Assembly: GCF_000760935.2 (NCBI RefSeq)
Contig: NZ_CP049745.1
Location: 1 to 64,000, forward strand
Reading direction: 5' to 3'
DNA: 64,000 nt
Source: Rhodococcoides fascians A25f
Lineage (GTDB): Bacteria > Actinomycetota > Actinomycetes > Mycobacteriales > Mycobacteriaceae
A program made the translations under genes and the position numbers. The notes under the pieces are model-generated. The model was given only the letters and a program-made list of their open reading frames with translations, was not told the origin of the DNA and ran no database searches. Below, piece after piece: positions 9,797 to 27,543 of the stretch (positions within the stretch are counted from its first letter, which is position 1; every line of letters starts with the position of its first letter).

Positions 9797-9803
9797 GGTG
9801 TCC

Positions 9804-10750: not shown

Positions 10751-10776
10751 GGAGAAAACAATATGAGGAGAAAACA

Positions 10777-11862: not shown

Positions 11863-11902
11863 CACCGTCCATCCCACGCAACCCAACCAAGGAAAGTCAC
11901 CT

Positions 11903-12583: not shown

Positions 12584-12840
12584 TCGCGGACCCACTCCGA
12601 CTCCGAGCACTACGTGACGGGAAGGTGAATACAAGTCCGCCGTCGACCGTCCGCGGCTGGTAGCGCAGGTGAGGATCGTTGCCCACAACTCGATACCCTC
12701 AGGTTGGTCAGCCGTTGAGAGCGTGCACGCCGACGGGGCCTTCATCTCGCTGAGAGGCGTCAGGTCTAGACGGATGAGCGCCCGGACGTCCGGGCGCGGT
12801 CTCGCTGGGAACATGGCCCGACGTTAGCCCCAGCACCTGC

Positions 12841-12890
12841 GTGGAAGGTCAAGGATTTGACCTTCCACCCGACTCGAAGGTTTATCCTCG
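12841..12890 (+). promoter_or_regulatory. MerR-type promoter/operator
   Basis: A perfect dyad GTGGAAGGTCAA/TTGACCTTCCAC spans 12841-12868. TTGACC (12857) is the -35 and TATCCT (12883) the -10, giving a 20-bp spacer characteristic of MerR-activated promoters, with ACCTTC/GAAGGT between. The transcription start would fall at or beside ATG 12896, so the mRNA may be leaderless. Confidence 0.75.
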
Positions 12891-12895
12891 TGCGC

Positions 12896-13327: not shown

Positions 13328-14358
13328 ACATATCGAGCACCACCTCGGTGGTGGCGTGGCTGGAGAAGTTCCAGATCCCGCTCTACCTGCTGGCCCTGCT
13401 CATCGGTGGCGGTGTCGGTTTGGGTGCGCCGTCGTCGGCGCATGCGTTCGAGATTGCTATCAATCCGGTACTGATCGTGTTGCTCTACGCTACGTTCCTC
13501 GCGGTTCCGTTCTCCGCCATCGGCGCATCGCTGCGCGACGGCACATTCTTGCTCAGCGTCGTAGTACTGAATTTCGTGCTCGTTCCAATCGTCGTATTCG
13601 CTCTGACCCGGTTCGTTGCTGCTGATCAGGCGGTACTCGTCGGTGTGCTGTTGGTGTTGTTGGCTCCCTGCATCGACTACGTCATCGTCTTCAGTGGGTT
13701 GGCCGGTGCAGCGTCGGAACGGCTCCTCGCGAGCGCGCCGCTGTTGATGTTGTTGCAGATCGCGTTCCTGCCGCTCTACCTGTGGTTGTTCGTCGGGTCC
13801 GAGCTGGTGGAGATCATCGACATTGCACCGTTCGTCGAAGCGTTCGTGCTGTTGATCGTTGTTCCTCTGGTGTTGGCGGCCCTGACGCAAGCACTTGCGC
13901 GTCGTCGGCGTATCGGCACCCAGATCATGGATGTGATGGCCGCGGCGATGGTGCCGGTCATGATGGCCACTCTTGCCGTCGTCGTGGCGTCGCAGATCGA
14001 CGCAGTCCGCTCCGAAGGCTCCCAGCTGTTTGCCGCGGTGCCGATCTTCGTCGCGTTCCTGGTCATCATGGCGGTTGTCGGATGGGCGACGGCCAGAGTG
14101 ACCCGCCTGGACGTCCCGGACGCTCGGGCCTTGATCTTCTCCGGTGCCACCCGAAATTCGTTGGTCGTTCTGCCGCTGGCGCTCGCGCTGCCACCAGCAC
14201 TGTCTCTTGCTGCCGTGGTCGTGGTGACGCAGACACTGGTGGAGCTGATCGGAATGGTCGCCTACGTCCGACTCATCCCCTGCCTTGTCCCAGCTCACGC
14301 TGCGAGAGCACCGGTGAAGTTCGAAACAACTCGCACGAACCAAGGCAATCCTGGGTGA
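13324..14358 (+). CDS. ACR3/BASS-type transporter (arsenic resistance-like)
   Basis: A 344-residue integral membrane protein with about ten helices of the bile acid:sodium symporter/ACR3 superfamily. The motif LLAPCIDYVIVFSGLAG resembles the ACR3 segment containing the essential membrane Cys. FSGATRNSLVVLPLALALP matches the second conserved repeat (S-G-A-T-R-N-S). ACR3 proteins export arsenite using proton motive force. Substrate specificity is inferred from the motif and MerR linkage, not proven. Its ATG overlaps the MerR stop (ATGA), so the pair is one operon. Confidence 0.82.
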   Translation: MNISSTTSVVAWLEKFQIPLYLLALLIGGGVGLGAPSSAHAFEIAINPVLIVLLYATFLAVPFSAIGASLRDGTFLLSVVVLNFVLVPIVVFALTRFVAADQAVLVGVLLVLLAPCIDYVIVFSGLAGAASERLLASAPLLMLLQIAFLPLYLWLFVGSELVEIIDIAPFVEAFVLLIVVPLVLAALTQALARRRRIGTQIMDVMAAAMVPVMMATLAVVVASQIDAVRSEGSQLFAAVPIFVAFLVIMAVVGWATARVTRLDVPDARALIFSGATRNSLVVLPLALALPPALSLAAVVVVTQTLVELIGMVAYVRLIPCLVPAHAARAPVKFETTRTNQGNPG

Positions 14359-14528
14359 CGAGAACTGGATAAAAGCAGGTGGCGTCAGTGAGGGTGAACG
14401 AACCACGGGATCCAGTGCCGCGACCCCGTTCCACTTCCCGCGAGCATTGAGCATCGAATGGGGACTTTTCCGGCAAACGCGCCTGTGGGCTCCGCGCCCG
14501 CTACGACTGCAGTCTCTACGCTGGCACC

Positions 14529-15434
14529 GTGCCCCTGCCGACCCATGTGACCGACCTGATCAGCTACGAATTATTGCTGTCCGTCGCCGAGCTGGGAAGC
14601 ATCGGACGCGCAGGGGAGGCGCATGACATGTCGCAGCCAGCGGCGAGCGCACGCCTGAAAGCACTCGAAAGCCGCATCGGGGTAGCACTCCTGCATCGCG
14701 GGCAGCGAGGTGCCACCCTCACCGCAACCGGCGAACTGGTCGCCGGCTGGGCCGAGCGCGTCATCGCCGAAGCCGCCGAGCTCGCCACGAGCATCGCAAT
14801 GCTGCGCACCGACCGCCACAGCCACATTCGTATCGCCGCAAGCCTCACCATCGCCGAATACCTCATACCGCGATGGCTCATCACACTGCGCTCCCACGAC
14901 ACTTCCATCACACCGACTCTCACCTCCGGAAACTCTGTCGACGTAGCCGCATCGGTGCTCGACGGCCGCGCCGACATCGGATTCGTCGAAAGCCCCGATC
15001 TGCCCAGCGGACTCCACTCGAAGGACGTTGCCCGCGACGAACTCGTCGTCGTCGTCGCCCCCGATCATCAATGGGCTCGACGAACGATCACGGCGAGCGA
15101 ACTGGCCGCGACACCGCTGGTCACCCGCGAACCCGGGTCCGGCACACGTCTCGCGCTCGAACGTGCGCTCCGGACTGCGGGCCCACTCGCCGCGCCACTG
15201 CTCGAGGTGTCCTCCACCACTGCCATCAAAGCTGCCGTCATCGGCGGCCTCGCACCGGCCGTACTCAGCTCCCTCGCGGTATCCGCCGAGATCGCCGCCG
15301 GAACGCTGGCCCGCGTTCACACAGAGGGGCTCGACCTGCGCCGGTTCCTGCGTGCCGTGTGGCCCGCGGGCCGTGAACTGCGAGGACCGTCGAGCGACCT
15401 GCTCGTCGTCGCCCTCAAATCCCCGCAGTCATAA
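14529..15434 (+). CDS. LysR-family transcriptional regulator
   Basis: A 301-residue LTTR. The N-terminal winged helix (SYELLLSVAELGSIGRAGEA, then MSQPAASARLKALESRIGVA) is followed by a periplasmic-binding-like effector domain (HIRIAASLTIAEYLIPRWLI, then DIGFVESPDLPSG). The start is GTG 14529. It lies 69 bases upstream of a TDT-family exporter in the same orientation and most likely controls it. LTTRs beside TDT sulfite exporters respond to sulfur compounds, but the ligand here is not evident from sequence. Confidence 0.9.
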   Translation: MPLPTHVTDLISYELLLSVAELGSIGRAGEAHDMSQPAASARLKALESRIGVALLHRGQRGATLTATGELVAGWAERVIAEAAELATSIAMLRTDRHSHIRIAASLTIAEYLIPRWLITLRSHDTSITPTLTSGNSVDVAASVLDGRADIGFVESPDLPSGLHSKDVARDELVVVVAPDHQWARRTITASELAATPLVTREPGSGTRLALERALRTAGPLAAPLLEVSSTTAIKAAVIGGLAPAVLSSLAVSAEIAAGTLARVHTEGLDLRRFLRAVWPAGRELRGPSSDLLVVALKSPQS

Positions 15435-15503
15435 CCTGAGGTTGGGACCGGCCAGGTAATCGGTGTCTACCGGTGACGACTGTGTGCGAGGACGCTGGAA
15501 GTC

Positions 15504-16775
15504 ATGACCACGACAGCTCTGCACCGCTCCTCCATCACGTCTCGGCGCGGCGACGATACCGAGCGGCCGCGCAAGTGGCCGGTGCTCTCCGACCTCGACC
15601 ACCCGAGCCAGATCTTCGAACACATCACCCCCAACTGGTTCGCCTCGGTCATGGGCACCGGTATCGTCGCCAACGCCGCCGCCACCCTGCCCGCCCACAT
15701 CCCCGGACTGCACGTGTTCGCAACGATCGTGTGGATCGCAGCGTCGGTCGCCTTGATCACACTCTCCGGTGCCTTCGCAGTGCACTGGATCCGACACCGG
15801 CAGTATGCGCGTGAGCACGCCGCGCATCCGGTGATGGTGCAGTTCTACGGCGCACCCCCCATGGCGCTGCTGACCGTCGGTGCCGGGACGATGCTGCTGG
15901 GCAAAGACGTCATCGGAGCGGCGCCCGCAACCGTGATTTTTGCCGTCCTGTGGACCGCTGGCACAGCCCTCGGGCTGATCACCAGCATTCTCGTGCCCTA
16001 CCTGATGATCACCGCCCACGATCACCAGACCGCCGTCGCACTCCCGGCGTGGTTGATGCCCGTCGTACCGCCGATGGTGTCCGCCTCCACCGGTGCGCTG
16101 CTGCTCCCTCATATCGCGGATGGGCAATGGCGCCTGGCCATGCTGTCCGGTTGCTACGCGATGTTCGGGCTGTCACTGATCATCGGAATGCTGACCATGA
16201 CGCTCATCTACGGACGGCTCGTCCACGGCGGAATCCCGCCGGTCCAGGCAGCACCGACGGTGTGGATCACCCTCGGCATGATCGGTCAATCGATCACCGC
16301 CGCGAACCTGCTCGGCAACGATGCACCCTTGGTGTTCACCGGCGAGACCGCCTCCGTCGCAACCGGCCTGCACGTGTTCGGCATTCTGTACGGACTGACG
16401 ATGGGCGGCTTCGGCGTCTTGATGTTCACCCTCGCAACCGCCCTCACCATCCATGCCGCCCAGAAGGGACTGACATTCTCACTGACCTGGTGGTCGTTCA
16501 CCTTCCCCATCGGCACCTGCGTCACCGGTGCCACTGCCCTCGGCGGCGCTCTGGGGTCGGCCGCGGTCGAGGCCCTTGCAATCGGACTGTATGCGGCCTT
16601 GCTCGCAGCCTGGGGCACAGTCGCCGCCCACACTCTCCGCGGCAGCGTGCAAGGAAAACTTTTTCAACCCAGCGGAACCGACCGCCGGGTAGTACCCACT
16701 CGGAACGCTGATACCGAACGAACAGCGTTGATCCAATCGACCACTGACCCCGGAAAGGACTCACGATCACGATGA
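15504..16775 (+). CDS. TDT-family (SLAC1/TehA/Ssu1-like) anion exporter
   Basis: A 423-residue protein with ten membrane helices of the voltage-dependent anion channel/TDT family. The TDT start motif ITPNWFASVMGTGIVANAAA is characteristic, and TWWSFTFPIGTCVTGATALG matches the conserved W-W-(A/S)-F-T-F-P-x-G helix. Family members include yeast Ssu1 sulfite exporter, TehA and SLAC1 anion channels. In actinobacteria with a LysR neighbour a sulfite or similar anion efflux role is most likely. A hydrophilic C-terminal tail of ~45 residues follows. It overlaps the next small membrane gene by 4 bases. Confidence 0.9.
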   Translation: MTTTALHRSSITSRRGDDTERPRKWPVLSDLDHPSQIFEHITPNWFASVMGTGIVANAAATLPAHIPGLHVFATIVWIAASVALITLSGAFAVHWIRHRQYAREHAAHPVMVQFYGAPPMALLTVGAGTMLLGKDVIGAAPATVIFAVLWTAGTALGLITSILVPYLMITAHDHQTAVALPAWLMPVVPPMVSASTGALLLPHIADGQWRLAMLSGCYAMFGLSLIIGMLTMTLIYGRLVHGGIPPVQAAPTVWITLGMIGQSITAANLLGNDAPLVFTGETASVATGLHVFGILYGLTMGGFGVLMFTLATALTIHAAQKGLTFSLTWWSFTFPIGTCVTGATALGGALGSAAVEALAIGLYAALLAAWGTVAAHTLRGSVQGKLFQPSGTDRRVVPTRNADTERTALIQSTTDPGKDSRSR

Positions 16776-17119
16776 ACACACCGAATGCAGACACACCGAC
16801 TTCCGATACCCCGAGACGGGGCAGCCGCGGACGCGTCTGGGCACGAGTCACCGAAAATTATCTGACCTGGCTGTTGCTGATGGCGGGAACAGCTGCTGCG
16901 GGGGCCTTTCTCACGGCCCTCGCCGGCGGGTTCGAGGGCTGGACCGTCGTCGCAGCGATCGTGACAGTGGTGCTGTTCGCGGGATGTTGGTTCTCATATC
17001 GAGACGGTGCACGCCGGGGTGCCGCCGAACCACACATCATCCAGTACCACCCCGACAGCCCGGACGAGGTGATCGACATCGACACCGACACCGGCGAACG
17101 CCAGCCCCACCAGGACTGA
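16772..17119 (+). CDS. small two-helix membrane protein
   Basis: 115 residues. A Thr/Arg-rich cytoplasmic N-terminus is followed by two hydrophobic helices (TWLLLMAGTAAAGAFLTALA, then WTVVAAIVTVVLFAGCWFSY) and an acidic C-terminal tail rich in Asp-Glu-His. The ATG overlaps the TGA of the TDT gene, so it is translationally coupled and may be an accessory subunit of that exporter. No named family is recognised. Confidence 0.75.
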   Translation: MNTPNADTPTSDTPRRGSRGRVWARVTENYLTWLLLMAGTAAAGAFLTALAGGFEGWTVVAAIVTVVLFAGCWFSYRDGARRGAAEPHIIQYHPDSPDEVIDIDTDTGERQPHQD

Positions 17120-17150
17120 CCGGTCGGAGGCAGCAGCAGCACGATCCGCC

Positions 17151-17786
17151 CTACCTCAGCACAGTGCGGGGTTCAGGTGCCTTCTCCAGGTGCGTTGCGA
17201 CCGACAGTGCTGCGTTGATCAACCGCTGGCGAGCAGCCGCCGGTGCGTGTGCGTTGCGAGCCGAGGGGTGCGGTGCCGCTATCACCGGGAGGAGGCGGGT
17301 GGGAGCAGATGCAGTGATGACGCGCATGTAGCCATCGAGAGCCTTCGCACCAAGAACGAAAACCACCTCCAGTTTCGGCAGCAAGGCCATAAGCTCGCCG
17401 ACATATGGGCCCGCCTCACCGAGAACGGATGCCGTCGGCGATACCGGATGACCGGCGTCATCGAGCACTGCCCACGGCACAATATTCCACTTGACGCACT
17501 GCACCCGGTCGATACCCGCGTCGGCGAACACCGATTTCAGCACGGGGTTCGTTCGATCTGGATTGTCGAACGAACACATGTTGGTCCCGCCCGGACGTAT
17601 CGTTTTCGGCCCCGGAGACTCCAACAGCACCAGACAGCGAGCCGCGTCGCCGCCGTCGTCGGGATCGAACAGTGGAATGGACCGTGCAGTGTCGATCCTC
17701 CATCGCAACACCGACGCATTGAGTGAGCGGACCGGGGCATCGTGCGCTCGGGCGTGCTTTCCGGACCACACGTCATCATCTGTCAT
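17151..17786 (-). CDS. uracil-DNA glycosylase superfamily protein
   Basis: A 211-residue protein with UDG-superfamily motifs in order: VLLESPGP (equivalent of G-E-(A/S)-P-G), then CSFDNPDRTNP, KWNIVPW with the conserved Asn/Pro, and the C-terminal PHPSARNAH, equivalent to the active-site H-P-S. The motif variants place it in a divergent clade annotated as UDG-like. It may remove deaminated bases or have a related nucleic-acid role. Oriented against the TDT operon, with ends 32 bases apart. ATG 17786 was preferred to the upstream GTG at 17795. Confidence 0.82.
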   Translation of the reverse strand: MTDDDVWSGKHARAHDAPVRSLNASVLRWRIDTARSIPLFDPDDGGDAARCLVLLESPGPKTIRPGGTNMCSFDNPDRTNPVLKSVFADAGIDRVQCVKWNIVPWAVLDDAGHPVSPTASVLGEAGPYVGELMALLPKLEVVFVLGAKALDGYMRVITASAPTRLLPVIAAPHPSARNAHAPAAARQRLINAALSVATHLEKAPEPRTVLR

Positions 17787-17795
17787 ACGCCGCAC

Positions 17796-18290
17796 TCACT
17801 GCTGACCCACGCCACACGTACTGCTGGCCATGGGGAAACGCACCGTGAGCCGTAGACGCCAGCTCTCGGTGGCTCGCCTCGACGACCACTGCTGAGCGTT
17901 TGACGACTCCGCTGCCTGAACACACCTATGAGATAACCACGACAGGCCGTGTGGTGCCTATTGCACCCGTCTTCTCATCGACTTCGATTCCAGATCAGGT
18001 CGGATACCCCCTAGGGTACTTACATACCCCCCTTGGTATATGCCACAGTGGGTACCGAACCGACCGAAAGTATGCACGACTTTTCTGGAATGAGTCCGGA
18101 AAACGAGCGACGGACCGATGCGGTGCGGCGAACGCAGAGCCAGCGCGTTCGGACTCGGATGTCGATCCGGGGTACGTCGTCAGCGTCCCGATCTCACTCG
18201 ACCGCGGTCCAGCCGTTCGGGCGGCCACGCGACCGACACGCTGTCCGAGGCACCGCATCGAAACCTGCCCGTGTCCGTGACGACTCGGTC
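17796..18290. other. intergenic region with orphan CsoR-like operator
   Basis: No gene is well supported. Short open frames from about 18072 may be the start of a lost gene downstream of the operator at 18004-18041. Confidence 0.5.
18004..18041. promoter_or_regulatory. tandem CsoR/RcnR-type operator-like sites
   Basis: ATACCCCCTAGGGTA (18004-18018) and ATACCCCCCTTGGTATAT (18024-18041) are two neighbouring dyads of the A-T-A-C-C-C-C-C...G-G-T-A-T type recognised by CsoR/RcnR/FrmR repressors. No gene for such a repressor lies nearby. Confidence 0.55.
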
Positions 18291-18968
18291 TCAGCGAGAG
18301 GCCCGCGCGATCGTGTTGCCCGCCGGATCGTCGATCACGATCGAGTGGATGTCCTCGACAGAAAGGGACGTTGCGCCGGTCACCGCTGCTGCTCGGCTCG
18401 CGGTGACCGACCATTGAGCTGCTTGTTGTCGAGTCCCGTCGTTGCCGACCACTTGCAGAGTGAGGATGCCTGCGCCGGGGAGTTGTTGAACGTCGACGTC
18501 GATCGATGTGCCCCAGGCTTTCGTGGTGAGCTCGAGGTCACCTGTGGCCCCGACGGTGCTCGACAGAACGAGCGGGCGGGCACCCGCATCGTTCACCGTT
18601 GTCGAATCGTCGGAGCGGGCGAGGGTACTGAGCGGGACGATCGCCGCAGCGACTCCCAGAACGAGGGTCGCCGACACCGCAGTCCACACTCGCCGCCGCC
18701 TCTTCTCGGAGGTCCGTTGATGCCTCATCGCGCTCAGCAGGTGGTCGAGTCGCTGGTCTGCACCGGCCGTCGAGTGCACCGGTGAGAGATCTGCTGGCTG
18801 CCTGCGACGTCGAAGCACTCCTGCGACGGGTGCCAGGACGTCGATTTCGGTTCGGCAGGCAAGGCAGTCGTCGAGGTGTCGTCGTACCGCTGCTCGGTCG
18901 TCGCGCTCGAGTCCGTCGAGTACGTACGCCCCGAGCAGTGGTCGGATCTCGTCGTGCGCTGAGCTCAT
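18291..18968 (-). CDS. anti-sigma factor (RskA-like, single membrane helix)
   Basis: 225 residues beginning MSSAHDEIRPLLGAYVLDGL. The cytoplasmic N-terminus holds the zinc-binding anti-sigma domain (HLDDCLACR, H-x3-C-x2-C). A membrane helix lies at about 95-117 (VWTAVSATLVLGVAAAIVPL), followed by an extracytoplasmic RskA-type beta domain (ELTTKAWGTSIDVDVQQLPG, then GTRQQAAQWSVT). It holds the adjacent ECF sigma factor inactive until a surface signal triggers proteolysis. Its ATG overlaps the sigma stop by 4 bases. Confidence 0.9.
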   Translation of the reverse strand: MSSAHDEIRPLLGAYVLDGLERDDRAAVRRHLDDCLACRTEIDVLAPVAGVLRRRRQPADLSPVHSTAGADQRLDHLLSAMRHQRTSEKRRRRVWTAVSATLVLGVAAAIVPLSTLARSDDSTTVNDAGARPLVLSSTVGATGDLELTTKAWGTSIDVDVQQLPGAGILTLQVVGNDGTRQQAAQWSVTASRAAAVTGATSLSVEDIHSIVIDDPAGNTIARASR

Positions 18969-19516
18969 GGAATCAATCCCAACTCGTCGAAGATCCGGCG
19001 TAGGGCACGCACAGCGTAATAGGAGCGGGACTTGACCGTGCCGACCGCGATATCGAGGTGCGCGGCCACTTCGGAGACGGTTCGACCCTCGTAGTAGATG
19101 AGCACGATGACTGCTCGATGCTCCTCGGACAACCGACGCAGCGACTCGTCTATGAGCCACCCGTCGAGGACCCCGCCCAATTCGTCGTCGATGCACTCGG
19201 CGGCGAGTGCGATCTGATCGTGGACGAGAGTCGGCCTGCTCGTGCTCGCCCGCCACTGATCGGTGAGTACGTTTCGCGCGATGGTCATGAGATAGGACCG
19301 CGTCGATGCTGCCGTCACATCGATGCGGTCGATCCCGCGCCACGCGCGCAACATCGTCTCCTGGACGATGTCCTCACACTGCTCGCGGGTCTGGGTGTAG
19401 CGGCTGACGAATCGAGTCACTGCGTGCTGGTGCTCGCGGAAGAGCGCCGACATGGCGACTTCGGACGCATCGACGAGCTGGTGGTTGTGCTGTGAGCCGG
19501 ATTCGACACCGTCCAC
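18965..19516 (-). CDS. ECF RNA polymerase sigma factor
   Basis: 183 residues with sigma-70 region 2 (SALFREHQHAVTRFVSRYTQ, then CEDIVQETMLRAWRGI) and region 4 (LRRLSEEHRAVIVLIYYEGR, then SEVAAHLDIAVGTVKSRSYY). The pairing with an RskA-type anti-sigma resembles the SigK/SigL group. I used GTG 19516, which directly follows the TAG of the upstream gene. ATG 19453 is an alternative nearer the usual length. The operon order is DUF302 lipoprotein, sigma, anti-sigma. It probably directs its own operon and surface-stress genes. Confidence 0.92.
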   Translation of the reverse strand: MDGVESGSQHNHQLVDASEVAMSALFREHQHAVTRFVSRYTQTREQCEDIVQETMLRAWRGIDRIDVTAASTRSYLMTIARNVLTDQWRASTSRPTLVHDQIALAAECIDDELGGVLDGWLIDESLRRLSEEHRAVIVLIYYEGRTVSEVAAHLDIAVGTVKSRSYYAVRALRRIFDELGLIP

Positions 19517-20503
19517 CTAACTGCCCGAGCCGGAAGCGGCATCGGTGAAACCGGTCGTGGCGGCGGCGACCATGTCGAGAACAGGATTGGTCGGCGAGAT
19601 CGAATGCCGAGCGGCGAGTACACGGATATCGGGGTGAGCCACGTGAACGATCCCTTCGGCATCCTGCCACGCCACGTATCGGGCGGGGAGGTCGATCCCC
19701 ATGGTCTGCTGCGCTCCGACCAGCGCAGTCGAGACCGCAGGATTACCGACGTAGGTGACCATGGTGGGCCTCAGAGGTGTCTCGGCAGCGGCGGACGCGA
19801 GATCGACGGTTGCGACTGTGGGCTGATTCTTGGCCGCGAACGCTGCCTCGTATCGGGCAATGGACGCTGCAACCGATGCATCACTGGTCTTCTCGACCAG
19901 GTATCCCGGCGCTGCGGACACATCGGTGCCCTCTGCGGCGGCCGCCGAGGATCCCGTCGCATCGGACGCGGTCGATGCCGAGCCGGCCCGGAGTCCGTCG
20001 AGGGCGTCGGACGAGACCGGGATGCCTGCGAGCGTCGCGATGTACTCGGCGGAGTTGTATGCCAGAAACACCGTTCCGTTGGCGGCCTGCCAGACCAGGT
20101 ACTTCTGTGGAAGGTCGATCGCGGCCCGTTGGTCCGCGGCGATCAACGGCGACGCCGCTTTCGGATTCCCCCCGATCACCACGGTGGTCGGGCGGATCGT
20201 CTCACCTGCTCCCTGTGCCAACTTCTCGAAATCCACAGTGGCTGCCACAGCTCCCGCCGTCTCCAGCGCGCGCTGTACCCGAGAGACCGTGTCACTCACA
20301 GAGTAGTTACTGGCGTACACCACCAGTCCGGGTTCGGACGGTGCCACATCGGGTGTCGCAGCCTTCGCGTCCGCCGACGTGGACACCGGAGTGCTCGACA
20401 CCGCCACCGAACCGGTGGGTTCGGTGGAACCGCACCCGGCGAGGGCGATCACCGCCGCCGACGCGAGCAGCGACGTTGCCATACGGAACCTTGAAGTGCT
20501 CAT
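19517..20503 (-). CDS. lipoprotein with two DUF302 domains
   Basis: 328 residues from ATG 20503. A lipobox (IALAGC) anchors the mature protein outside the membrane, followed by an Ala/Ser/Thr linker. Two copies of the DUF302 fold follow. Each ends in a G-N-P-x-x-x-x-x-L-(I/V) strand, then I-D-L-P-x-(K/R)-Y-(L/V)-(V/A)-W-(Q/D) (around residues 120-160 and 255-300). DUF302 proteins are small extracytoplasmic domains of unclear activity, suspected in redox or metal stress. Being first in the sigma/anti-sigma operon, it could be the sensor or a regulated effector. Confidence 0.85.
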   Translation of the reverse strand: MSTSRFRMATSLLASAAVIALAGCGSTEPTGSVAVSSTPVSTSADAKAATPDVAPSEPGLVVYASNYSVSDTVSRVQRALETAGAVAATVDFEKLAQGAGETIRPTTVVIGGNPKAASPLIAADQRAAIDLPQKYLVWQAANGTVFLAYNSAEYIATLAGIPVSSDALDGLRAGSASTASDATGSSAAAAEGTDVSAAPGYLVEKTSDASVAASIARYEAAFAAKNQPTVATVDLASAAAETPLRPTMVTYVGNPAVSTALVGAQQTMGIDLPARYVAWQDAEGIVHVAHPDIRVLAARHSISPTNPVLDMVAAATTGFTDAASGSGS

Positions 20504-20762
20504 CACGTGTCCTGTCCTCGTGCCCACGCCAGCGGTGGGCTTCACTGTGGTGTACGCACACCGAGCCTGAGGGGTTCACCCGAACCGAAGTTCCCTCCGG
20601 CGATTGCTCCCGGAATGTCGGTGCACCGGAGGGCGACACAGTCGAGTTCACGCAAGCGGAGATCTGATCGATCGGTTCACCCCGGTCTCGTCGAGCGTCT
20701 CCACGCCACAGAAGCGGCCTGAACGGGTGCAGGGACCATCTTCGCGGCACGAACGGCCGACC

Positions 20763-21857
20763 TCACGGCGGCACTTCTGCCTCGACGAATTCGAGAAGCC
20801 GCTTCAACAGTGAATCCGCACGCTCTTCGACGTCGTCGAGCGTCGAATCGACGCCACCGAGTAGCTGGTGTGCGTCTCGGCGTGCCCGAGTCCCGTGTTC
20901 GTAGTAGCCGGGGTCGAGTAGCGAAGCCGAGGCGGGCTTGGGTACGAGATCTGTGCTCGGCTGCCGTGCCTGCACCGAATGGTGTCGGTGCACAGGTGCT
21001 CGTCCGTCCAGGTGCGCTCGAACGATGTCGGCGACCGCATGGGCGGTAAGTGCAGTCGCAGTCAGCGGGGTGTGACCCCACCGGTCGATTGCGGTCGACA
21101 GCGGCTGTCGACCGGCCGGATCGACGTACCGGTCGAATCCGCTGAGCCCGGTACCGCCCACGGCATCGAGAGCGTCGGCGAGCATTCGAGTGTTCGGGTA
21201 CCGCGTGTGATGGCCCAGCACCTCCAACCAGCGCTGGAACACCGTCCGCGGCGAGATACCCGTCTCCATCAGTGCGAGAGGAGTGACGGTGCGAACGCCG
21301 CGGCCTGTGTCGATACGAAGGGCATCGATCCTCGGATCGGCGGTGACGTCGCAGGGCCGCAGGGCCGCGATCTGGGTGTACGGCAGACCGGTCGAGGCAA
21401 AGACCAGGACGAGGGCGTCTCGCCGCGCGAACAGTTCGGACGGCCAACCGGATTCGGGGAGGCGCGCGATGACGCCGCCGATCACGGCTGCCAGCTCGTG
21501 CAGGCGCGCCGTACGCGCCACGTCCAGCGCAGCCCGGACGACCTCCGCACGGCCCGGCTGGGGTAACAGGTGCCGGGAATGGGCGGCGTCGATCACCGCG
21601 ATCCGGCGGCGCTGGGTCGTGGACGCCGCGGGGTGCGCCGAGAGGAACCGAGCAAGTGAATCCGGGGAGGCCGCCAGTGGTGTTTCGTCATGGGCGGTGC
21701 ACCAGTCCTCGAACAGTGACCACGTGTGCCGATCCCGCTTCGGCACCGCCACGTTCGTGATATCCGCTGGTCGAATCGAACCGGTGCAGTCGTCGTGGTC
21801 AGCATCTACCCCGGTCGCCCTATCGGCGTTCACGGGTGAAGTCACACGCCCGGTCAT
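20763..21857 (-). CDS. inactive tyrosine-recombinase homologue (partner protein 1)
   Basis: 364 residues. The N-terminal half has the SAM-like core-binding domain of integrases (HTWSLFEDWCTAHDETPLAA, then SLARFLSAHPAA). The catalytic-domain scaffold follows (SELFARRDALVLVFASTGLP), but the first catalytic Arg of the G-x-R-x-S-E motif is replaced (GLPYTQIAAL), and no H-x-x-R box or C-terminal Tyr motif is found. It overlaps the active recombinase by 4 bases. A homologue with the same losses lies at 54609-55607. It probably serves as an architectural or target-binding partner. Confidence 0.8.
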   Translation of the reverse strand: MTGRVTSPVNADRATGVDADHDDCTGSIRPADITNVAVPKRDRHTWSLFEDWCTAHDETPLAASPDSLARFLSAHPAASTTQRRRIAVIDAAHSRHLLPQPGRAEVVRAALDVARTARLHELAAVIGGVIARLPESGWPSELFARRDALVLVFASTGLPYTQIAALRPCDVTADPRIDALRIDTGRGVRTVTPLALMETGISPRTVFQRWLEVLGHHTRYPNTRMLADALDAVGGTGLSGFDRYVDPAGRQPLSTAIDRWGHTPLTATALTAHAVADIVRAHLDGRAPVHRHHSVQARQPSTDLVPKPASASLLDPGYYEHGTRARRDAHQLLGGVDSTLDDVEERADSLLKRLLEFVEAEVPP

Positions 21858-23026
21858 AGACCGAGTTCGGTGACCGCGTTGCCGACCAGAGGGGCGTGCT
21901 CGCGGGCATATGTCTCGACCATTGCGGGTGTGGTGTGCCCGGTCTGGCGCATGATCGCATGTGCATCGGCACCGTTACGGAAGGCTTGGGTGACGAATCC
22001 TGCCCGCAGGGAATGGCCGCCGAGCTGCATGACAGTCTCGGGGTCGTACCCGGCGTGAGCTGCGCGGCGGCGGATCGCCGCATGGACCGCTGCCCCGGAC
22101 AACACAGTGTCGGAGAGGTTGCCGTTCTTGCGGACAGACCGGAACAGCGGCGACCGTTTCTCGGCGGTCGGCAGGGTGCCGCGGCAGAGATGGGAGTCGA
22201 ATTGTGCTGCGCGAGAAAGCAGTCGAATGACGGCGGCTCTGCCCCCGGTGTCGAACGCGGCGACGATCTGCAGCCATCGCACCCACGCGCAGACCGGGCA
22301 GGATTCGTGGCAGTCGGTGAACGGAAGCGCTTTCACCGTTCCGATGCCGGTTCCGTCCTGGTCGGTCTTCGATCTTCGGATCCGTACGTGCGCACCGTCG
22401 AGACGGTCGCGGCGCACATCGCGGCATTCCAGCGCTACGAGTTCGCTGCGTCGAAATGCGCCGGTGTATCCCATCAGCAGCAGCGCGGTGTCGCGGCGTT
22501 CGAGCACCTCCGACGCCCACCCCGCTGTAGTGCGTCGGGCGTGGTCGACGATCGTGGTGATGTCGGAGGTCAGCAGCGGTGCGCGCGGGTTGCGGGGCCG
22601 CTCCCCCGCCGACGCGTAGTCCCGCCGGATACCGGCGAGGGTGGCGCGCACCATCTCGTGCCCGCACGGGTTGTCGTGTCCGGTAGCGCGGTGGCGGTCG
22701 GCGATCGCCGCAATCCACTTGCCGAACGTCGCGGCCGCGTACGCCCGCGTCCCGTCGACGGTGAGCGTGTCGGCCGCGGCGACGAGGTAGGCCGCCACTG
22801 TCGCGGGATGCGCCGGCAACGCGTGGTGCCCGGCGACGGTGCACCAGGTCTCGAAGCGTCGCCACGCCGAGGTGTAGGCCCGGCGGGTACCGGTCGAGCG
22901 GGACGCGGCCATGGAACGCTCGATCCGAGCAGCAACCTCGGGCGGTAGGTCTGGAAACACCGCCGCGGCACCCGGCACGACAGCCGGGATCGTGGTCGGG
23001 CCGTCTACGAGCTGGCGATCTGTCAT
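21854..23026 (-). CDS. tyrosine recombinase
   Basis: 390 residues from ATG 23026, which matches the start of the homologue at 45688. The N-terminal core-binding domain contains STGTRRAYTSAWRRFETWC. Catalytic residues are all visible: Arg in GAFRRSEL, Lys in RSKTDQ, H-S-L-R (GHSLRAGFVT), His in QTGHTTPAM, and Tyr in VETYAREHAPL. A TACAGT -10 element ends 6 bases before the ATG, suggesting a leaderless mRNA. Placed next to tniQ where Tn402 relatives have the serine resolvase, it may resolve cointegrates of this transposon at the repeat-rich site 23201-23534. Confidence 0.92.
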   Translation of the reverse strand: MTDRQLVDGPTTIPAVVPGAAAVFPDLPPEVAARIERSMAASRSTGTRRAYTSAWRRFETWCTVAGHHALPAHPATVAAYLVAAADTLTVDGTRAYAAATFGKWIAAIADRHRATGHDNPCGHEMVRATLAGIRRDYASAGERPRNPRAPLLTSDITTIVDHARRTTAGWASEVLERRDTALLLMGYTGAFRRSELVALECRDVRRDRLDGAHVRIRRSKTDQDGTGIGTVKALPFTDCHESCPVCAWVRWLQIVAAFDTGGRAAVIRLLSRAAQFDSHLCRGTLPTAEKRSPLFRSVRKNGNLSDTVLSGAAVHAAIRRRAAHAGYDPETVMQLGGHSLRAGFVTQAFRNGADAHAIMRQTGHTTPAMVETYAREHAPLVGNAVTELGL

Positions 23027-23073
23027 GGCTGGACTGTAGCGGGCCCTCCCGACAGACTTCTCAGGCCGAAAGC

Positions 23074-23107
23074 ACGCTGAGCAGGCGTTTCCGCGGAGAC
23101 GGTGCGG
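23074..23107 (-). repeat. conserved 34-bp element upstream of the recombinase (also 45608-45641)
   Basis: On the minus strand it begins CCGCACCGTCTCCGCGGAAA and ends GCTCAGCGT. About 28 of 34 bases match the element upstream of the homologous recombinase at 45688, with similar distance to the start codon. It could be a core recombination site or operator. Confidence 0.6.
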
Positions 23108-23200
23108 GAAGGAAAATTCTCGTCGGTCACCGCACAAATAACGTTGGTGACTATGACCCCGGCGCGAAAACGGGCTCCTCTGCTATCGCCGCGTGTGCGT

Positions 23201-23534
23201 CGCGTGTGAAGTGACACGCTGGTTGTCCAATTGACAGCCTTTCTGTCCAATCGTGACCAGGGCATGTCCACTCCTGAAGACCGCCCGCATGAAAGCTCCC
23301 CACGGCCGCGCTAGCTTCCTTGTCATCGCCGCAGGTCCAGACCCCCTCATCGCCAACACGAGGACGGGCTCCGGCTGGTCTTCACGTTGGACAACTTCAC
23401 TGACAACACGCGCAGAGACCGAAGATTTTCGATCATTGGACAGGTTATTTGGCACCCGACCAGGCATTCCCCCAGCAACGCGGTGGACAACTACCTGGTC
23501 CGATTGGACAACTTCGGTGTCACTTCACATCGCG
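23201..23534. promoter_or_regulatory. putative recombination (resolution) site of the transposon
   Basis: A non-coding stretch between tniQ and the recombinase, bounded by ~32-bp inverted repeats. Positions 23201-23232 contain TGTGAAGTGACAC followed by GTTGTCCAAT, and 23502-23534 holds the reverse complement with few changes. Further TTGGACA/TGTCCAA boxes lie near 23245, 23387, 23436 and 23484. Multiple spaced boxes plus inverted ends are typical of complex tyrosine-recombinase resolution sites. Confidence 0.6.
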
Positions 23535-23560
23535 GACGACCCCGCTCCATCGGGCGAGAG

Positions 23561-24793
23561 CTATGTCGGCGGATGGTGCAGCGGGATCCCGTGGTCAAGG
23601 AACAGTTGCACCGTCTCATCCAGCTCCGCCGCGGTGCGGCACCCCATGCGCAGGAAGTTGTACAACGAACTGGCGGATGCGGGATCGACACGCGCCGCCG
23701 CGATGGCGGCCTCGGCCGCAGCGTGCGCGTCAGCCCATAAATCGCGCTCGGGTGCGGGATAAGACGAGCGCGTCGGAGCTGTCCCGGGATCGACCGGCTC
23801 ATACGGTCGTGGGCTCAGCAGAGATGCGTGCGCACCGCCGGCATCGATCTCACCGCTCTCGACCAACGCAATGCCGATCGCTGCGGCCTCGAGGACTTTC
23901 GCCTGCTCGTCCCAGTGCAGGTCCTCGAACGGAACCCACGCTGTCCGCAACGGGCGAGAACGACCGGCGGCCTTCCAGATCGCAACGAGCCTCGTCGCCC
24001 ACCGTCCCGTGCGAACCAGTGGCGAAGACACTTCGTCGACAACGGTGCGCAGAAGCCGAAACCACACTGCGGCATGTACCCGGCCTGGGCCGAGTTCCAC
24101 CCATCCCGTCGTCAGAGCCTCGGTACTGCGCCGATCGAGGTCCGTGACCGCTGAGGGAACCGGAACGGGCGAGACCCGTTCATCCGAACCGAACCGGACC
24201 TCATCCCAGAAGATTGCATAACCAGGGAAAGCAGAGCAGGGTTCGAGTCGACAACGGTGGTCGAGGCAGCTGCTCAGCACCGGATATTGCTGCAGCAGAG
24301 TCATGTTGATATCAGCAGTGGATTCGAGGCTGTCGACACATGCCGGGCATGCCCGACTGCGCAGAGTGCTCGCCCACGGCAACCATGCCTCGCTCGTGGG
24401 TGTGCGACGTCGTCGATCCTCCCTCGCGAGGTCGGCCGGCAGCAGGATCGAGAATTGGTGGACGTAGGTGTCGAAGTCGCAGTCGGCGGGGTCAGTGCTG
24501 TCGAGCAACCACGGTGTCCACCCCGCCAACGTCATCATCCGCACCCTCTCCACCGGGACTGCGCCGCGACCGGCCAGCTCGACAAGTATCGGCTCCGGTG
24601 TGTAGCGGTCGAGATCCTCGACAGCACAATCGATATCGAGGTCTGCAAGCAGGTCAGAAGGCTTGATGTGCGGATACAGCTCGCATATCCGGGCCAACCA
24701 GGACGAGAGGACCTCGCCTGGCAGTGGCTGCGGGTGCAGCGGCCACGGGCGAACGTACGCATCACCGGGCACCGCCGCGAGCCGCGCGTTCAT
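23561..24793 (-). CDS. tniQ: transposition protein TniQ
   Basis: 410 residues. The N-terminal TniQ domain starts with LHPQPLPGEVLSSWLARICE, the usual P-x-P-x-E-S-x-x-S-W-L-x-R signature. Zinc-finger cysteines follow (RACPACVDS, then SSCLDHRCRLEPC). TniQ is a TnsD-like factor that works with the TniB ATPase in target choice for Tn402/Tn5053-type elements. Its ATG overlaps the tniB stop by 4 bases. It is the last gene of the tniA-tniB-tniQ operon. Confidence 0.88.
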   Translation of the reverse strand: MNARLAAVPGDAYVRPWPLHPQPLPGEVLSSWLARICELYPHIKPSDLLADLDIDCAVEDLDRYTPEPILVELAGRGAVPVERVRMMTLAGWTPWLLDSTDPADCDFDTYVHQFSILLPADLAREDRRRRTPTSEAWLPWASTLRSRACPACVDSLESTADINMTLLQQYPVLSSCLDHRCRLEPCSAFPGYAIFWDEVRFGSDERVSPVPVPSAVTDLDRRSTEALTTGWVELGPGRVHAAVWFRLLRTVVDEVSSPLVRTGRWATRLVAIWKAAGRSRPLRTAWVPFEDLHWDEQAKVLEAAAIGIALVESGEIDAGGAHASLLSPRPYEPVDPGTAPTRSSYPAPERDLWADAHAAAEAAIAAARVDPASASSLYNFLRMGCRTAAELDETVQLFLDHGIPLHHPPT

Positions 24794-25728
24794 GCGAGGT
24801 GGCGTTCGAACTGGCGGCGTCGCTCCGTGGGACCGACGTACGGAGTGCGCGTGAGCACCGATGAGGTGATCGCTTCCTCTCCGCTGTCGACGGCGGTCAC
24901 TGCTGCGGCTGTGAGCAGCGTTGTCAGTTCACCGATAGTGCCCTCGGAGCGAGTGAGGAGGTAGTCGGTCATCTCCGGTGATGTCAGGTGCGAGGGTTTG
25001 CGGAGGGGGAAGCTCGTGGTGAAGCTGGCCAGCAGTGATCTGGTGTCGGCAGTGTTGGTCCAGACCGGCAAAGTCATGGGGTGGAATCGGTTCTCCAGCT
25101 GGGGATCGGTCCGGATGGCGAGGTAGGCGTCGCGGGTTCCGACAGCGACAAGAGGAATGCGTAGTTCGTTGCCCAGGAACCGCAGCACGTTCAAGAATTC
25201 GCGGCGGACGTTGTCGCGGCCGGCGAGAACATTGTGGAGCTCGTCGATGATCAACATCTTCACGCCGGTGGCGCGGAGCAGCATCAATGCTTGCTGTTCG
25301 AGTTCGTGGACCCGATTGCGTGGTCGGGTCGGTGTTCCCAACGCTGTGAGCAGTGCGAGGTAGAACCGGCCGGGTGACGGGTCCGGGGGCATCTGCATGC
25401 ACAACACCGGTATCTGCTCGCGATCGGACAAGCTGATCGGCGGATGAGTGCGCCGGAACTTTTCGATGATCATCGACTTGCCGTTGTTCGTCGGACCGAG
25501 CAACAGTAAGTTCGGCATACGCTGCCGGTCCGGCCACGACAGCAACGACTCCAGATGGTAGATGACCGTACGGGCCTGCGGATACCCGATCCACCTCTCC
25601 GACCGAATCAACCGGATCCGCTCCGCGTCGTCGAGTGCGGTGAGCGGTCGAACCGACTCCCGCAAGTGCCCCAAATCCTCGATCGACGACTCGGTGGGTT
25701 CGTCGCTGCTTCCTGTCGATGCGGTCAT
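24790..25728 (-). CDS. tniB: transposition ATPase TniB
   Basis: 312 residues from ATG 25728. AAA+ ATPase with Walker A GPTNNGKS, Walker B MLIIDELHNVL and sensor-1 segment PLVAVGTRDAY. TniB (TnsC-like) forms filaments on target DNA and recruits and activates the TniA transposase. The ATG lies 4 bases after the tniA stop. The longer in-frame extension into tniA was rejected because the typical N-terminus (TALDDAERIRLIRSERWIGY) is fully contained in this start. Confidence 0.92.
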   Translation of the reverse strand: MTASTGSSDEPTESSIEDLGHLRESVRPLTALDDAERIRLIRSERWIGYPQARTVIYHLESLLSWPDRQRMPNLLLLGPTNNGKSMIIEKFRRTHPPISLSDREQIPVLCMQMPPDPSPGRFYLALLTALGTPTRPRNRVHELEQQALMLLRATGVKMLIIDELHNVLAGRDNVRREFLNVLRFLGNELRIPLVAVGTRDAYLAIRTDPQLENRFHPMTLPVWTNTADTRSLLASFTTSFPLRKPSHLTSPEMTDYLLTRSEGTIGELTTLLTAAAVTAVDSGEEAITSSVLTRTPYVGPTERRRQFERHLA

Positions 25729-25732
25729 CGCC

Positions 25733-27412
25733 TCACCATTCCTCGATGTCACTGAAGACAGGCGTTGCGGTGCCGCCGCCCGCTCGAGGCTCCACCGGCG
25801 GGTGGATCGCCGGGATCGGTGCAGACGCGGCACCGTTGAGATGCGTGCGGCGGGCACGGTTGCGCCGGGCTTTGCGGGTGGCTTTCTGCGAGCGGTCGGT
25901 GACCTCGCGCATCTGCTCGATCATCGAAAACAGTGCGCTCTCATCGACGTTCGACCGACCTTGTTCGCGGAGACGGGCGATAGCAGCTCTGTGCTCCCAC
26001 AGTGTCACCGCGGGATGTGACATCGTCCGGTACGGCACCTCGACATAGCCGGCACCGTCTGGTTCGAGGACCCAGATTCTGCTCAAATCGCGTGGGTCAC
26101 GTCGTATCACGAACCGCCCCAGGTCCTCTCGCCGCGCAACCCACGGTTTGAGCGCGTTCGAGAAGTAGTGCACGTGATCGAGAACGAAGCCCGTGCGCGT
26201 CAAACGTCGCCGGATGACGGGAAGAAAGTCCACCAGGAACGCGGTTTCGCCGAGCACCACACGAGGGGCGTGACCAACTGCGGCTACCTCGCCGGCCCAC
26301 ACGGTGGCCGGAGTGTTCCCAATCCCTGTGTGAACGCTCGCGTGATACGAGGCTATGGCCAGGACCAGCCAGCGCTCCAACTCACGCAATGTCAACGCCG
26401 CGTGCTTGTACGAGTCGTAACTTCCTCGGTCCGCTGGGTTCGAGAAGGTGGTCCCAGGCAGCTCGTGCACCGCCGTCATCGCCGTTCCGATGATGCGTTC
26501 GACGATCCCGCCGTAGTGCGGTCGGCCCGGAGGACGGTATTCGAGTGTGATGGCGTGCTGGGCGCATCCGCGGCGCAGTGCTTCGCTTTTGAACTCGGAG
26601 GCGTTGTCGAGATACAACTGTTTCGGCTTCCCTGCCATCGGCCACTGCACCTGCTCCGCGAGCTCGCATGCCTCCAGCCATGTCTGCTTCTCGCAGCACA
26701 CGCGGCCCAGGCACAACCCGACCGATATCGACGACGGCGGCTCCAGAGTGACGACGAACCCGAGTACGGAACGGCTGAAGACATCAATGGCGATCGTCAG
26801 GTAGGGGCGGCCGATCGGTTGTCGCTCGTACTCGTCAACGACCATCAGATCGACGACGGTGTGGTCGATCTGGACCTGATCGAGAATCCCCGAAACCGTC
26901 GGTGGACTGTCGCCGGCGGACTGACGTGGGCGGGCGGCATCGGGTCCTCCGCGTGACCTGGCCACCGATGCCGGATGGAGCGCGGCGATACGCGCGGTGA
27001 CGGTATTTCTGGCCGGCACTGGCAGACCCGCGCGGTGACAGGCCAGTGCTATACGTCGATGCAGCGCAGCGACACTCAGCTTCTGGCGGTGAAGAAAATA
27101 GCGGGTGAGATGATCGCCGATCACTTCCTCGACCTCAGCCGTCACTCGGCTGCGGCCACGCCCTCCCGACGAGACCTTCGTCAGAAGATCGGTGACTGTC
27201 CCCGTCCCGTTCCTGAGCCTGCCGACCAACGTGTAGACCTGCCGCCTGGACAATCCCAACCGTTGCGCGGCATCGTCGACCGCTTCCGAACGCACCGGAT
27301 GCATCTCCAGCAAGGGAGCCAGGACAGCGAAACGGGCCTCAGCCTGAGACCACCGCTCCCCCGACGCTGTCAGCACGCCGGTCTCCACGACGTCGAGCTT
27401 GTCGGGGTCCAT
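25733..27412 (-). CDS. tniA: transposase TniA (DDE integrase-like)
   Basis: 559 residues from ATG 27412 (GGGAGG upstream). Helix-turn-helix domains occupy the first ~170 residues (DAAQRLGLSRRQVYTLVGRL). The DDE/rve catalytic core has Asp in VQIDHTVVDL, Asp in LYLDNASEFK and Glu in GGIVERIIGT. A Mu-type C-terminal barrel follows (PWVARREDLGRFVIRRDPRD). TniA cuts and joins the transposon ends. The gene starts 131 bases inside the right terminal repeat. A dyad with TGTCAGAAG arms lies in its promoter region, so TniA may control its own expression. Confidence 0.95.
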   Translation of the reverse strand: MDPDKLDVVETGVLTASGERWSQAEARFAVLAPLLEMHPVRSEAVDDAAQRLGLSRRQVYTLVGRLRNGTGTVTDLLTKVSSGGRGRSRVTAEVEEVIGDHLTRYFLHRQKLSVAALHRRIALACHRAGLPVPARNTVTARIAALHPASVARSRGGPDAARPRQSAGDSPPTVSGILDQVQIDHTVVDLMVVDEYERQPIGRPYLTIAIDVFSRSVLGFVVTLEPPSSISVGLCLGRVCCEKQTWLEACELAEQVQWPMAGKPKQLYLDNASEFKSEALRRGCAQHAITLEYRPPGRPHYGGIVERIIGTAMTAVHELPGTTFSNPADRGSYDSYKHAALTLRELERWLVLAIASYHASVHTGIGNTPATVWAGEVAAVGHAPRVVLGETAFLVDFLPVIRRRLTRTGFVLDHVHYFSNALKPWVARREDLGRFVIRRDPRDLSRIWVLEPDGAGYVEVPYRTMSHPAVTLWEHRAAIARLREQGRSNVDESALFSMIEQMREVTDRSQKATRKARRNRARRTHLNGAASAPIPAIHPPVEPRAGGGTATPVFSDIEEW

Positions 27413-27460
27413 CACAAGCCTCCCTGTCACCGAGAGCCGAACGTGCGACCGTGCACCGCA

Positions 27461-27543
27461 CTTCTGACATCAGAATGTCAGAAGACACGTGCACTCACCC
27501 TCGAAACGCCTGCAAAGAGTGCAGCCGTCTTCTGAACCTGACA
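27461..27543. repeat. right terminal inverted repeat and inner transposase sites
   Basis: The outer end (27543 inward) reads TGTCAGGTTCAGAAGACGGC. An inner inverted copy TCAGAAGACACGTGCACT lies at 27478-27495, and a 9-bp-arm dyad CTTCTGACA/TGTCAGAAG at 27461-27484. These are TniA-binding-type repeats and overlap the tniA promoter. Confidence 0.88.

What the first reader, a model, noticed from the sequence alone, without database searches (positions are those of the whole stretch)
20763..23560. Tn402-type transposon with a tyrosine recombinase pair in place of the TniR serine resolvase
tniA-tniB-tniQ are followed not by tniR/res but by an active tyrosine recombinase, an overlapping inactive homologue, and a 330-bp site built of ~32-bp inverted repeats (23201-23232, 23502-23534) plus several TTGGACA boxes. 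Known Tn402/Tn5053 elements resolve cointegrates with serine resolvase TniR. I infer that resolution has been taken over by a tyrosine recombinase module with its own complex site, comparable in concept to TnpS/TnpT-rst of Tn4651.
Basis: partly seen in the sequence, partly recalled or inferred. Interest (0 to 1): 0.8.

Follow-up and report, generated by a model that had tools for sequence, protein, structure and literature searches.

The report
Transposon with a tyrosine-recombinase resolution module
A bacterial jumping element of the Tn402 kind appears to separate its copies with a Cre-like enzyme and an inactive-looking Cre-like partner instead of the usual serine resolvase, while the odd repeats beside these genes turn out to be a second, tiny jumping element.

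Summary
The recombinase half of the finding holds; the site half does not. An 18.5-kb element (9073-27543) with Tn402/Tn5053-type ends sits beside a serine-resolvase gene, apparently in its res region. It holds tniABQ, a Cre-related tyrosine recombinase (TR1) and a Cre-related partner without recognisable catalytic residues (TR2), and no serine resolvase. Two relatives have perfect 5-bp duplications outside ends that enclose the pair. The pair (intact or decayed) stands behind tniQ at 25 of 32 tniQ loci of 37 genomes of the genus. The 23205-23529 "site" is a 325-bp MITE-like insertion (TSD TCGCG; solo copies elsewhere with other TSDs; absent from 34 of the 37 genomes). The real site is a double palindrome at 23098-23151 in front of TR1. 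Natural mosaics suggest it is used: of 50 locus pairs with a sharp identity break, 43 break within 100 bp of it, and often a whole half-transposon is exchanged. Unexpectedly, the five near-complete MITE insertions found lie 79-334 bp from such palindromes, in one orientation. Tyrosine resolvases in Tn5053-related elements are already predicted in print (PMC8649781); the pair, the mapped site and the site-seeking MITE did not turn up in nine literature searches. No experiment was done.

The parts
9073..27543 (.). Tn402/Tn5053-type transposon, 18,471 bp, with passenger genes between 9.1 and 20.7 kb
   Evidence: end repeats TGTCAGTTTCAGAAGACGACTGCACT (9073, +) and the same on the minus strand ending at 27543, 24 of 26 matches between them; flanking 5-mers CGGCC and GATCC differ, so no target duplication in this copy
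9073..9119 (+). left end with a second copy of the repeat
27470..27543 (-). right end: terminal repeat 27518-27543 and a further related repeat at 27470-27495 (other strand)
25733..27430 (-). tniA (DDE transposase)
   Evidence: Pfam Mu-transpos_C, rve
24790..25857 (-). tniB (ATPase; true start probably later, the ORF overlaps tniA)
   Evidence: Pfam TniB 8e-75
23561..24793 (-). tniQ (target selection)
   Evidence: Pfam TniQ; 38.6-39.8% identical to TniQ of proteobacterial plasmids such as pMCBF6
23205..23529 (.). 325-bp MITE-like insertion with terminal inverted repeats; flanking duplications TCGCG at 23200-23204 and 23530-23534.
23126..23151 (-). P1, imperfect palindrome GTCACCAACG-TTATTT-GTGCGGTGAC, presumed accessory site
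   Evidence: conserved in the tni elements
23098..23125 (-). P2, presumed crossover core: CGACGAGAA-TTTTCC-TTCCCGCACCGTC, ending 71 bp before the TR1 ATG
   Evidence: identity breaks map here; pattern in front of 59 of 64 TR1 homologues
21854..23026 (-). TR1, active-looking tyrosine recombinase (ATG at 23026; the ORF can be read from TTG 23137)
   Evidence: PF00589; R192/R193, K220, H338, R341, H364 and Y373 invariant in 16 homologues; Cre match 5.6e-14
20763..21857 (-). TR2, Cre-related partner without recognisable catalytic residues; overlaps TR1 by 4 bp
   Evidence: hhalign to the TR1 family 98.9%; Cre match 2.7e-8; predicted model matches Cre/Tre structures only at E up to 0.01
8369..8971 (-). 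serine resolvase gene outside the left end, starting 101 bp from it
   Evidence: Pfam Resolvase 2e-45
8972..9072 (.). res-like region of that resolvase, interrupted by the transposon
   Evidence: aligns by eye with the upstream region of the 97% identical resolvase in L010, which is also interrupted by a tni transposon
18291..20545 (-). passenger genes next to TR2: zf-HC2 protein, sigma factor, DUF302 protein
   Evidence: Pfam

Best explanation
This is a replicative TniABQ transposon of the Tn402/Tn5053 kind that inserts at serine-resolvase res regions, but whose own resolution system is a tyrosine-recombinase module. TR1, a Cre-related recombinase, cuts and rejoins DNA at P2 (23098-23125); P1 (23126-23151) and the non-catalytic Cre relative TR2 probably give the complex its architecture, so that only directly repeated sites in a cointegrate are joined. 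When two different elements are joined, the same reaction swaps the tniABQ half of one with the TR-plus-passenger half of the other. Shown by sequence: gene order, ends, site conservation, identity breaks at P2. Inferred: catalysis by TR1, the roles of TR2 and P1, cointegrate resolution. The 23205-23529 repeats are a MITE that landed beside this site.
For: Pair enclosed by transposon ends with perfect 5-bp TSDs in L010 (TACGC) and L011 (TGGGC). No serine resolvase inside. tniABQ-site-TR1-TR2 order in L007-L012 (6 of 6) and behind 25 of 32 tniQ loci of 37 genomes, 3 of the 25 decayed. Serine resolvase in the same place in L097-L099 of related genera. TR1 catalytic residues invariant. P2 pattern in front of 59 of 64 TR1 homologues; about 1% of shuffled regions have it. 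Breaks: 465 pairs of 31 loci, 50 with a sharp break and one side at most 3% divergent, 43 of these within 100 bp of P2; e.g. L061 against L049: 37% divergent on the tniQ side, 0.0% over the next 1.2 kb. The window's TR side is 99.96-100% identical over the 4.6-5.8 kb compared in L033, L035, L044, L045, L046, while the tni side is 94.9-97.8%. L037 and L048 keep tniQ and the site up to P2 but no TR genes. One TR haplotype stands behind six tniQ-side haplotypes; 8 haplotypes have more than one partner for a split at P2, 3 and 3 for control splits inside either half.
Against: No experiment. 7 of the 50 breaks lie elsewhere, and TR1/TR2 also recombine internally (L040: TR1 90%, TR2 100%; L007: TR1 97%, TR2 72%). 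Some exchanges do not run to the end of the half (L061/L049: 95.4% over 4.9 kb). The haplotype network has no closed cycle, so recombination is inferred from unequal divergence. Loci share ancestry and pairs are not independent. 7 of 32 tniQ loci lack the pair. The window copy has no TSD. The same pair with the same site occurs on plasmids without tni, so it is not a private part of the transposon.
Confidence: 0.78

Rival explanations
1. TR2 is a target selector, like TnsF of Tn6022 (an inactivated tyrosine recombinase that brings TniQ to a target), and TR1 its relic partner; the pair serves target choice, not resolution.
For: TnsF is an inactivated tyrosine recombinase in a Tn7-like element (PMC10293859, passages).
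Against: TR2 is operonic with TR1, not with tniQ; 100 Rhodococcus plasmid records match TR2 and only 14 match TniQ. These elements sit at serine-resolvase res regions, the usual target of TniABQ elements, without needing a new selector. TR1 keeps all catalytic residues.
Confidence: 0.08
2. The pair is a plasmid multimer-resolution or integration module carried as cargo; mosaic breaks at P2 come from its activity for other replicons or from RecA acting on a conserved patch.
For: More distant versions of the pair stand on plasmids and chromosomes without tni and with the same site; there too loci share one flank and differ on the other at P2 (L071/L076, L082/L084). A 28-bp conserved patch between divergent flanks could steer homologous recombination.
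Against: Fixed position between tniQ and the passengers in 25 of 32 tniQ loci. Breaks cluster at P2 also where both flanks are about 95% identical and RecA could act anywhere (window against L033, L044, L045, L046).
Confidence: 0.13
3. One reading: the 330-bp block 23201-23534 is the resolution site of the pair.
For: Real inverted repeats and five TTGGACA boxes next to TR1.
Against: 5-bp TSD, solo copies with other TSDs, absent from 34 of 37 genomes and from 6 of 6 named relatives; sits outside the conserved site.
Confidence: 0.01

Closest known systems
Tn402/Tn5053 family (res-site hunters; tniABQ-res-tniR)
   Same: tniABQ, 25-bp-class end repeats in arrays, insertion at a serine-resolvase res region, 5-bp TSDs in two relatives (family features from PMC7765201, passages)
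   Different: no tniR/res; a tyrosine recombinase pair and a double palindrome take their place
Tn7-like clades 2 and 3 with a tyrosine resolvase (Benler et al. 2021, PMC8649781, section 11 read in full)
   Same: TnsA-less transposon with a tyrosine resolvase; replicative transposition plus resolution predicted there; Tn5053 is in their clade 3
   Different: the section and passages seen name no two-gene pair with an inactive partner, no site, no recombinants; its figure S7 and supplements were not seen
TnpS/TnpT-rst of Tn4651 (Tn3 family; PMC7157771, passages)
   Same: tyrosine recombinase plus helper, site of paired inverted repeats
   Different: [quoted passage not shown] here colinear overlapping genes, site in front of both, helper related to Cre
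TnpI-IRS of Tn4430 (PMC7157771, passages)
   Same: site just upstream of a tyrosine resolvase gene, palindromic core plus further repeats
   Different: single recombinase there; the accessory repeats are direct repeats there, a second palindrome here
Cre of phage P1
   Same: closest solved structures for both TR1 and TR2 by sequence and for the TR2 model
   Different: Cre works alone (recalled); here two paralogues, one without recognisable catalytic residues
TnsF of Tn6022 (PMC10293859, passages)
   Same: inactivated tyrosine recombinase in a Tn7-like element
   Different: TnsF is operonic with tniQ, has N-terminal zinc fingers and selects comM; TR2 follows TR1 and also occurs without TniQ

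Membership tests
Tn402/Tn5053 family | tniA, tniB, tniQ in this order | tested here: met
Tn402/Tn5053 family | characteristic terminal repeats, in arrays | tested here: met
Tn402/Tn5053 family | 5-bp target duplication | tested here: inconclusive
   window and L012: none; L010 TACGC, L011 TGGGC; loss of duplications after insertion is described for Tn502 (PMC7765201, passage)
Tn402/Tn5053 family | insertion in a res region next to a serine resolvase gene | tested here: met
   resolvase 8369-8971 starts 101 bp from the end; same region interrupted in L010; res subsites judged by eye
Tn402/Tn5053 family | own serine resolvase TniR with res behind tniQ | tested here: not met
   no Resolvase domain within 9073-27543; hence filed as a tni transposon variant, not as a canonical member
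TnpS/TnpT-rst type | divergent genes with the site between them | tested here: not met
   TR1 and TR2 overlap in one direction, site upstream
TnpS/TnpT-rst type | helper protein unrelated to recombinases | tested here: not met
   TR2 related to TR1 and Cre
tyrosine recombinases | R-K-HxxR-H-Y catalytic set | tested here: met
   TR1: invariant in 16 sequences; the motif order is recalled
tyrosine recombinases | same set in TR2 | tested here: not met
   first Arg pair not kept in the hhalign alignment, C-terminal catalytic part not alignable; conserved Y318/Y319 in a differently built C-terminus, so inactivity is inferred, not proven
tyrosine resolution site | recombination between two copies of the site | tested here: inconclusive
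   natural identity breaks at P2; no assay
TnsF-type target selectors | gene operonic with tniQ, N-terminal zinc fingers | tested here: not met
   TR2 lies behind TR1 and the site; no Pfam domain found; no zinc-finger search beyond that
MITE (for 23205-23529) | terminal inverted repeats, target duplication, several copies, no transposase gene | tested here: met
   the autonomous partner was not found

The most novel reading that the evidence does not exclude
A two-component Cre: an active Cre-like enzyme (TR1) with a catalytically dead Cre-like paralogue (TR2) forms a directional resolvase at a double palindrome, is shared by plasmids and Tn402-like transposons, and lets these transposons trade halves (transposition genes against passengers) at one 28-bp point. 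That same palindrome is in turn a landing target for another kind of TniQ-type mobile DNA: the MITE at 23205-23529 belongs to a family that hunts tyrosine-recombinase sites as Tn402 hunts serine res sites. For: 5 of 5 near-complete MITE insertions lie 79, 81, 81, 289 and 334 bp from a P2-type palindrome, same side and orientation, with different TSDs in the four whose two ends were read; shuffled loci have 0.003 such patterns each. Against: of the diverged single-end matches L023 and L105 lie about 1.3 kb from a TR1 homologue, L024 about 7.5 kb, and L028 has none in its 24 kb.
Probability: 0.45. Interest if true: 0.78.

Novelty: new variant of a known kind. Interest (0 to 1): 0.62.

Why it matters
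Replicative transposons need a resolvase, and the Tn402 family, which carries many class 1 integrons, is known for a serine one. Here a whole branch in one actinobacterial genus and near kin seems to use a tyrosine system, and the sequence record shows where its crossover lies. That makes the tyrosine-resolvase prediction for Tn5053-related elements directly testable on a 54-bp site. It also shows how transposition genes and passenger genes are reshuffled at a fixed point, and raises the idea that some mobile DNA homes in on tyrosine-recombinase sites.

Tried and rejected
An invertible segment flanked by the inverted repeats: rejected because TSDs and solo copies explain the repeats. Integration of the TR module as a unit at P2, which predicts a second P2 behind the module: not seen in the scan of the tni loci fetched by then (second-best matches at most 20 of 28). 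Search for the P2 core in IMG/VR: 0 exact matches of one 26-base version. One genome-contig scan for the MITE end gave 3 loci, one of them a genome already seen. The autonomous element behind the MITE was not found. TR1 fits no NCBIfam model above its cut-off and TR2 none at all. Literature: 9 searches in an open-access library only; [quoted passage not shown] PMC12915292 (passages) describes Tn7706, a Tn7-like element with tnsA; PMC3414803 (passages) has no such element.
Full report
What is there. The window's 9073-27543 is a transposon with Tn402/Tn5053-type ends. tniA, tniB, tniQ, TR1 and TR2 run leftwards from the right end; the passenger genes include CrcB, SBF-type transporter, LysR regulator, SLAC1-type transporter, UDG-like, zf-HC2, sigma factor and DUF302 proteins. 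Outside the left end, 101 bp away, a serine resolvase gene starts (8369-8971). Its upstream region matches by eye that of a 97% identical resolvase in L010, where a tni transposon is also inserted. A palindrome AGAAACG..CGTTTCT at about 27650 in the right flank resembles one in the uninterrupted upstream region of L069 (by eye). This fits the res-site-hunter habit of the family (PMC7765201, passages). The window copy has no target duplication; L010 and L011 have perfect ones (TACGC, TGGGC), L012 none. So the pair lies inside the element.

No serine resolvase inside. The whole genome has four Resolvase-domain places: two on this contig outside the transposon, two on the chromosome.

The pair. 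TR1 keeps R192/R193, K220, H338, R341, H364 and Y373 in 16 of 16 homologues aligned (the motif order is recalled). TR2 aligns with the TR1 family at 98.9% probability over the N-terminal part and the first catalytic motif, where TR1's GAFRRSEL is GLPYTQIA; the part with HxxR, H and Y does not align. Both match Cre among solved structures (best E 5.6e-14 and 2.7e-8). The TR2 model (mean pLDDT 82, pTM 0.65) matches only Cre and Tre chains at E up to 0.01, with low TM-scores (0.19-0.33), which leaves the domain arrangement open. That TR2 is inactive is therefore inferred.

23205-23529 begins TGTGAAGTGACA and ends in its reverse complement, flanked by TCGCG on both sides. Copies 80-85% identical stand alone on R. 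jostii RHA1 pRHL3, Rhodococcus sp. ZPP and R. opacus G13 plasmids with their own TSDs. The six named relatives with tniABQ-TR1-TR2 lack it, as do 34 of 37 genomes of the genus; the three with it have it at this spot, 100% identical. Elements whose TR side is nearly identical to the window's but that lack the insertion show the empty site. It is a MITE-like element; the transposase that moves it is unknown, and the TTGGACA boxes may be its binding sites (inference).

The real site. Between tniQ and TR1 all 31 tni-TR1 loci in the table keep two adjacent imperfect palindromes, P1 (23126-23151) and P2 (23098-23125). A P2-type pattern stands in front of 30 of 34 close and 29 of 30 more distant TR1 homologues; shuffled regions have it in about 1% (in one close locus the first hit is another stretch). 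Three of the four close exceptions (L063-L065) share one altered upstream region, the fourth (L102) has a Tn7-like element between P2 and TR1. The arms vary together (GAGAA/TTCCC, GTAAA/TTTAC, GCTAA/TTAGC).

Evidence of use. For 31 loci, 465 pairs were scanned over 1.5 kb on the tniQ side and 1.2 kb on the TR side; L037 and L048, which have no TR genes, were left out. Fifty pairs have a strong change point with one side at most 3% divergent; 43 change points lie within 100 bp of P2, 7 elsewhere. Examples: L061/L049 37% against 0.0%; L007/L009 0.0% against 17.8%; L032/L033 0.0% against 15.9%. Over longer stretches the window's TR half is 99.96-100% identical for the 4.6-5.8 kb compared in L033, L035, L044, L045 and L046, against 94.9-97.8% on the tni side; L056/L057 are 99.9% on the tni side and 77% on the TR side. 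At 99% identity one TR-side haplotype stands behind six tniQ-side ones and another behind four; the network has no closed cycle. With a split at P2, 8 haplotypes have more than one partner, against 3 and 3 for splits inside either half. L061/L049 and L007/window show that exchange does not always run to the end of the half. The pairs are not independent, and RecA acting on the conserved patch cannot be excluded, but breaks also fall at P2 where both flanks are about 95% identical.

How general. In 37 genomes of the genus, 32 places hold a near full-length TniQ; the pair stands behind 25, decayed in L042, L047 and L054, and is missing behind L034, L037, L048, L055, L058, L059 and L060; L037 and L048 still show the site up to P2. 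Of 27 TR1 places of 80% identity or more (one split in two pieces), 22 are next to TniQ. A sample of 301 genomes of the family gave TniQ matches in 23, 9 of them outside the genus; of 10 loci fetched from these 9, L092-L094 have P2 and TR1 (TR2 intact in L093 and L094), L097-L099 a serine resolvase about 150 bp behind tniQ (L098 and L099 are one genome), L095, L096, L100 and L101 neither. In plasmid records TR2 is matched in 125 (100 Rhodococcus), TniQ at E 1e-20 in 14 Rhodococcus records, so the pair is older or wider than its link with tni.

Mechanism. Most likely TniABQ make a cointegrate at a res region and TR1, helped by TR2, resolves it at P1-P2; joining of two different elements yields the observed hybrids. 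Shown: anatomy, conservation, breaks. Inferred: catalysis, the helper role, resolution. TR2 as a TnsF-like target selector (PMC10293859, passages) is the most interesting rival; its gene position and its presence without TniQ speak against it.

The MITE as site hunter. Five insertion loci hold at least 303 of its 325 bp (window, L025, L026, L027, L106). All lie 81, 79, 334, 289 and 81 bp from a P2-type palindrome, with the same end towards it; the L106 copy lacks its far end. Shuffled loci have 0.003 such patterns each. Single-end, diverged matches fit less well: L023/L105 about 1.3 kb from a TR1 homologue, L024 about 7.5 kb, L028 none. In pRhX5 (L102) a Tn7-like element lies between P2 and TR1.

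Known or new. Benler et al. 2021 state that Tn5053-related elements have either a serine or a tyrosine resolvase and predict its role in resolution (PMC8649781, section 11). The pair with an inactive-looking partner, the site, the natural recombinants and the site-seeking MITE were not found in nine searches of an open-access library. Hence: new variant of a known kind.

Noticed in passing
window 45688-46863 (+) and 54609-55607 (+): A second, distant TR1 (59%) with its own P2-type palindrome at about 45590, and a second TR2 (37%) 8 kb further on; between them a C5 methylase, an MTaX1 protein, a RelA/SpoT-type protein, a nucleoid-associated protein and a MerR regulator. TR1 and TR2 are separated by other genes in the same way at other loci (e.g. 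L067, L069, L072).
   Followed up: partly
L102 (pRhX5) 10161-29642, L103 (pLP337): A Tn7-like element (TnsA, TnsB, TniB, TniQ, cargo) lies behind P2 of a tniABQ transposon; in L102 TR1 and TR2 follow about 19 kb later. With the MITE this makes the tniQ-TR1 gap an insertion spot for two kinds of element.
   Followed up: partly
L014 (pRaL13f) 8451-14567: TR1 and TR2 stand behind a different, distant transposase and AAA-ATPase set (Mu-transpos_C; AAA_22; a second AAA-like protein), so the pair may serve a second transposon family.
   Followed up: partly
L012 (R. erythropolis KB1 plas4) 7905-15371: Four Tn402-type end repeats in two orientations around one tniABQ-TR1-TR2 set without matching duplications: nested or repeated insertions at one resolvase gene.
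   Followed up: no
window 40212-40772 (+): A second serine resolvase gene on the plasmid (58% to the first), with no tni transposon end found near it.
   Followed up: no
L026 4306-4320: The base run just outside the MITE's right end reads like the start of another copy of its terminal repeat.
   Followed up: no
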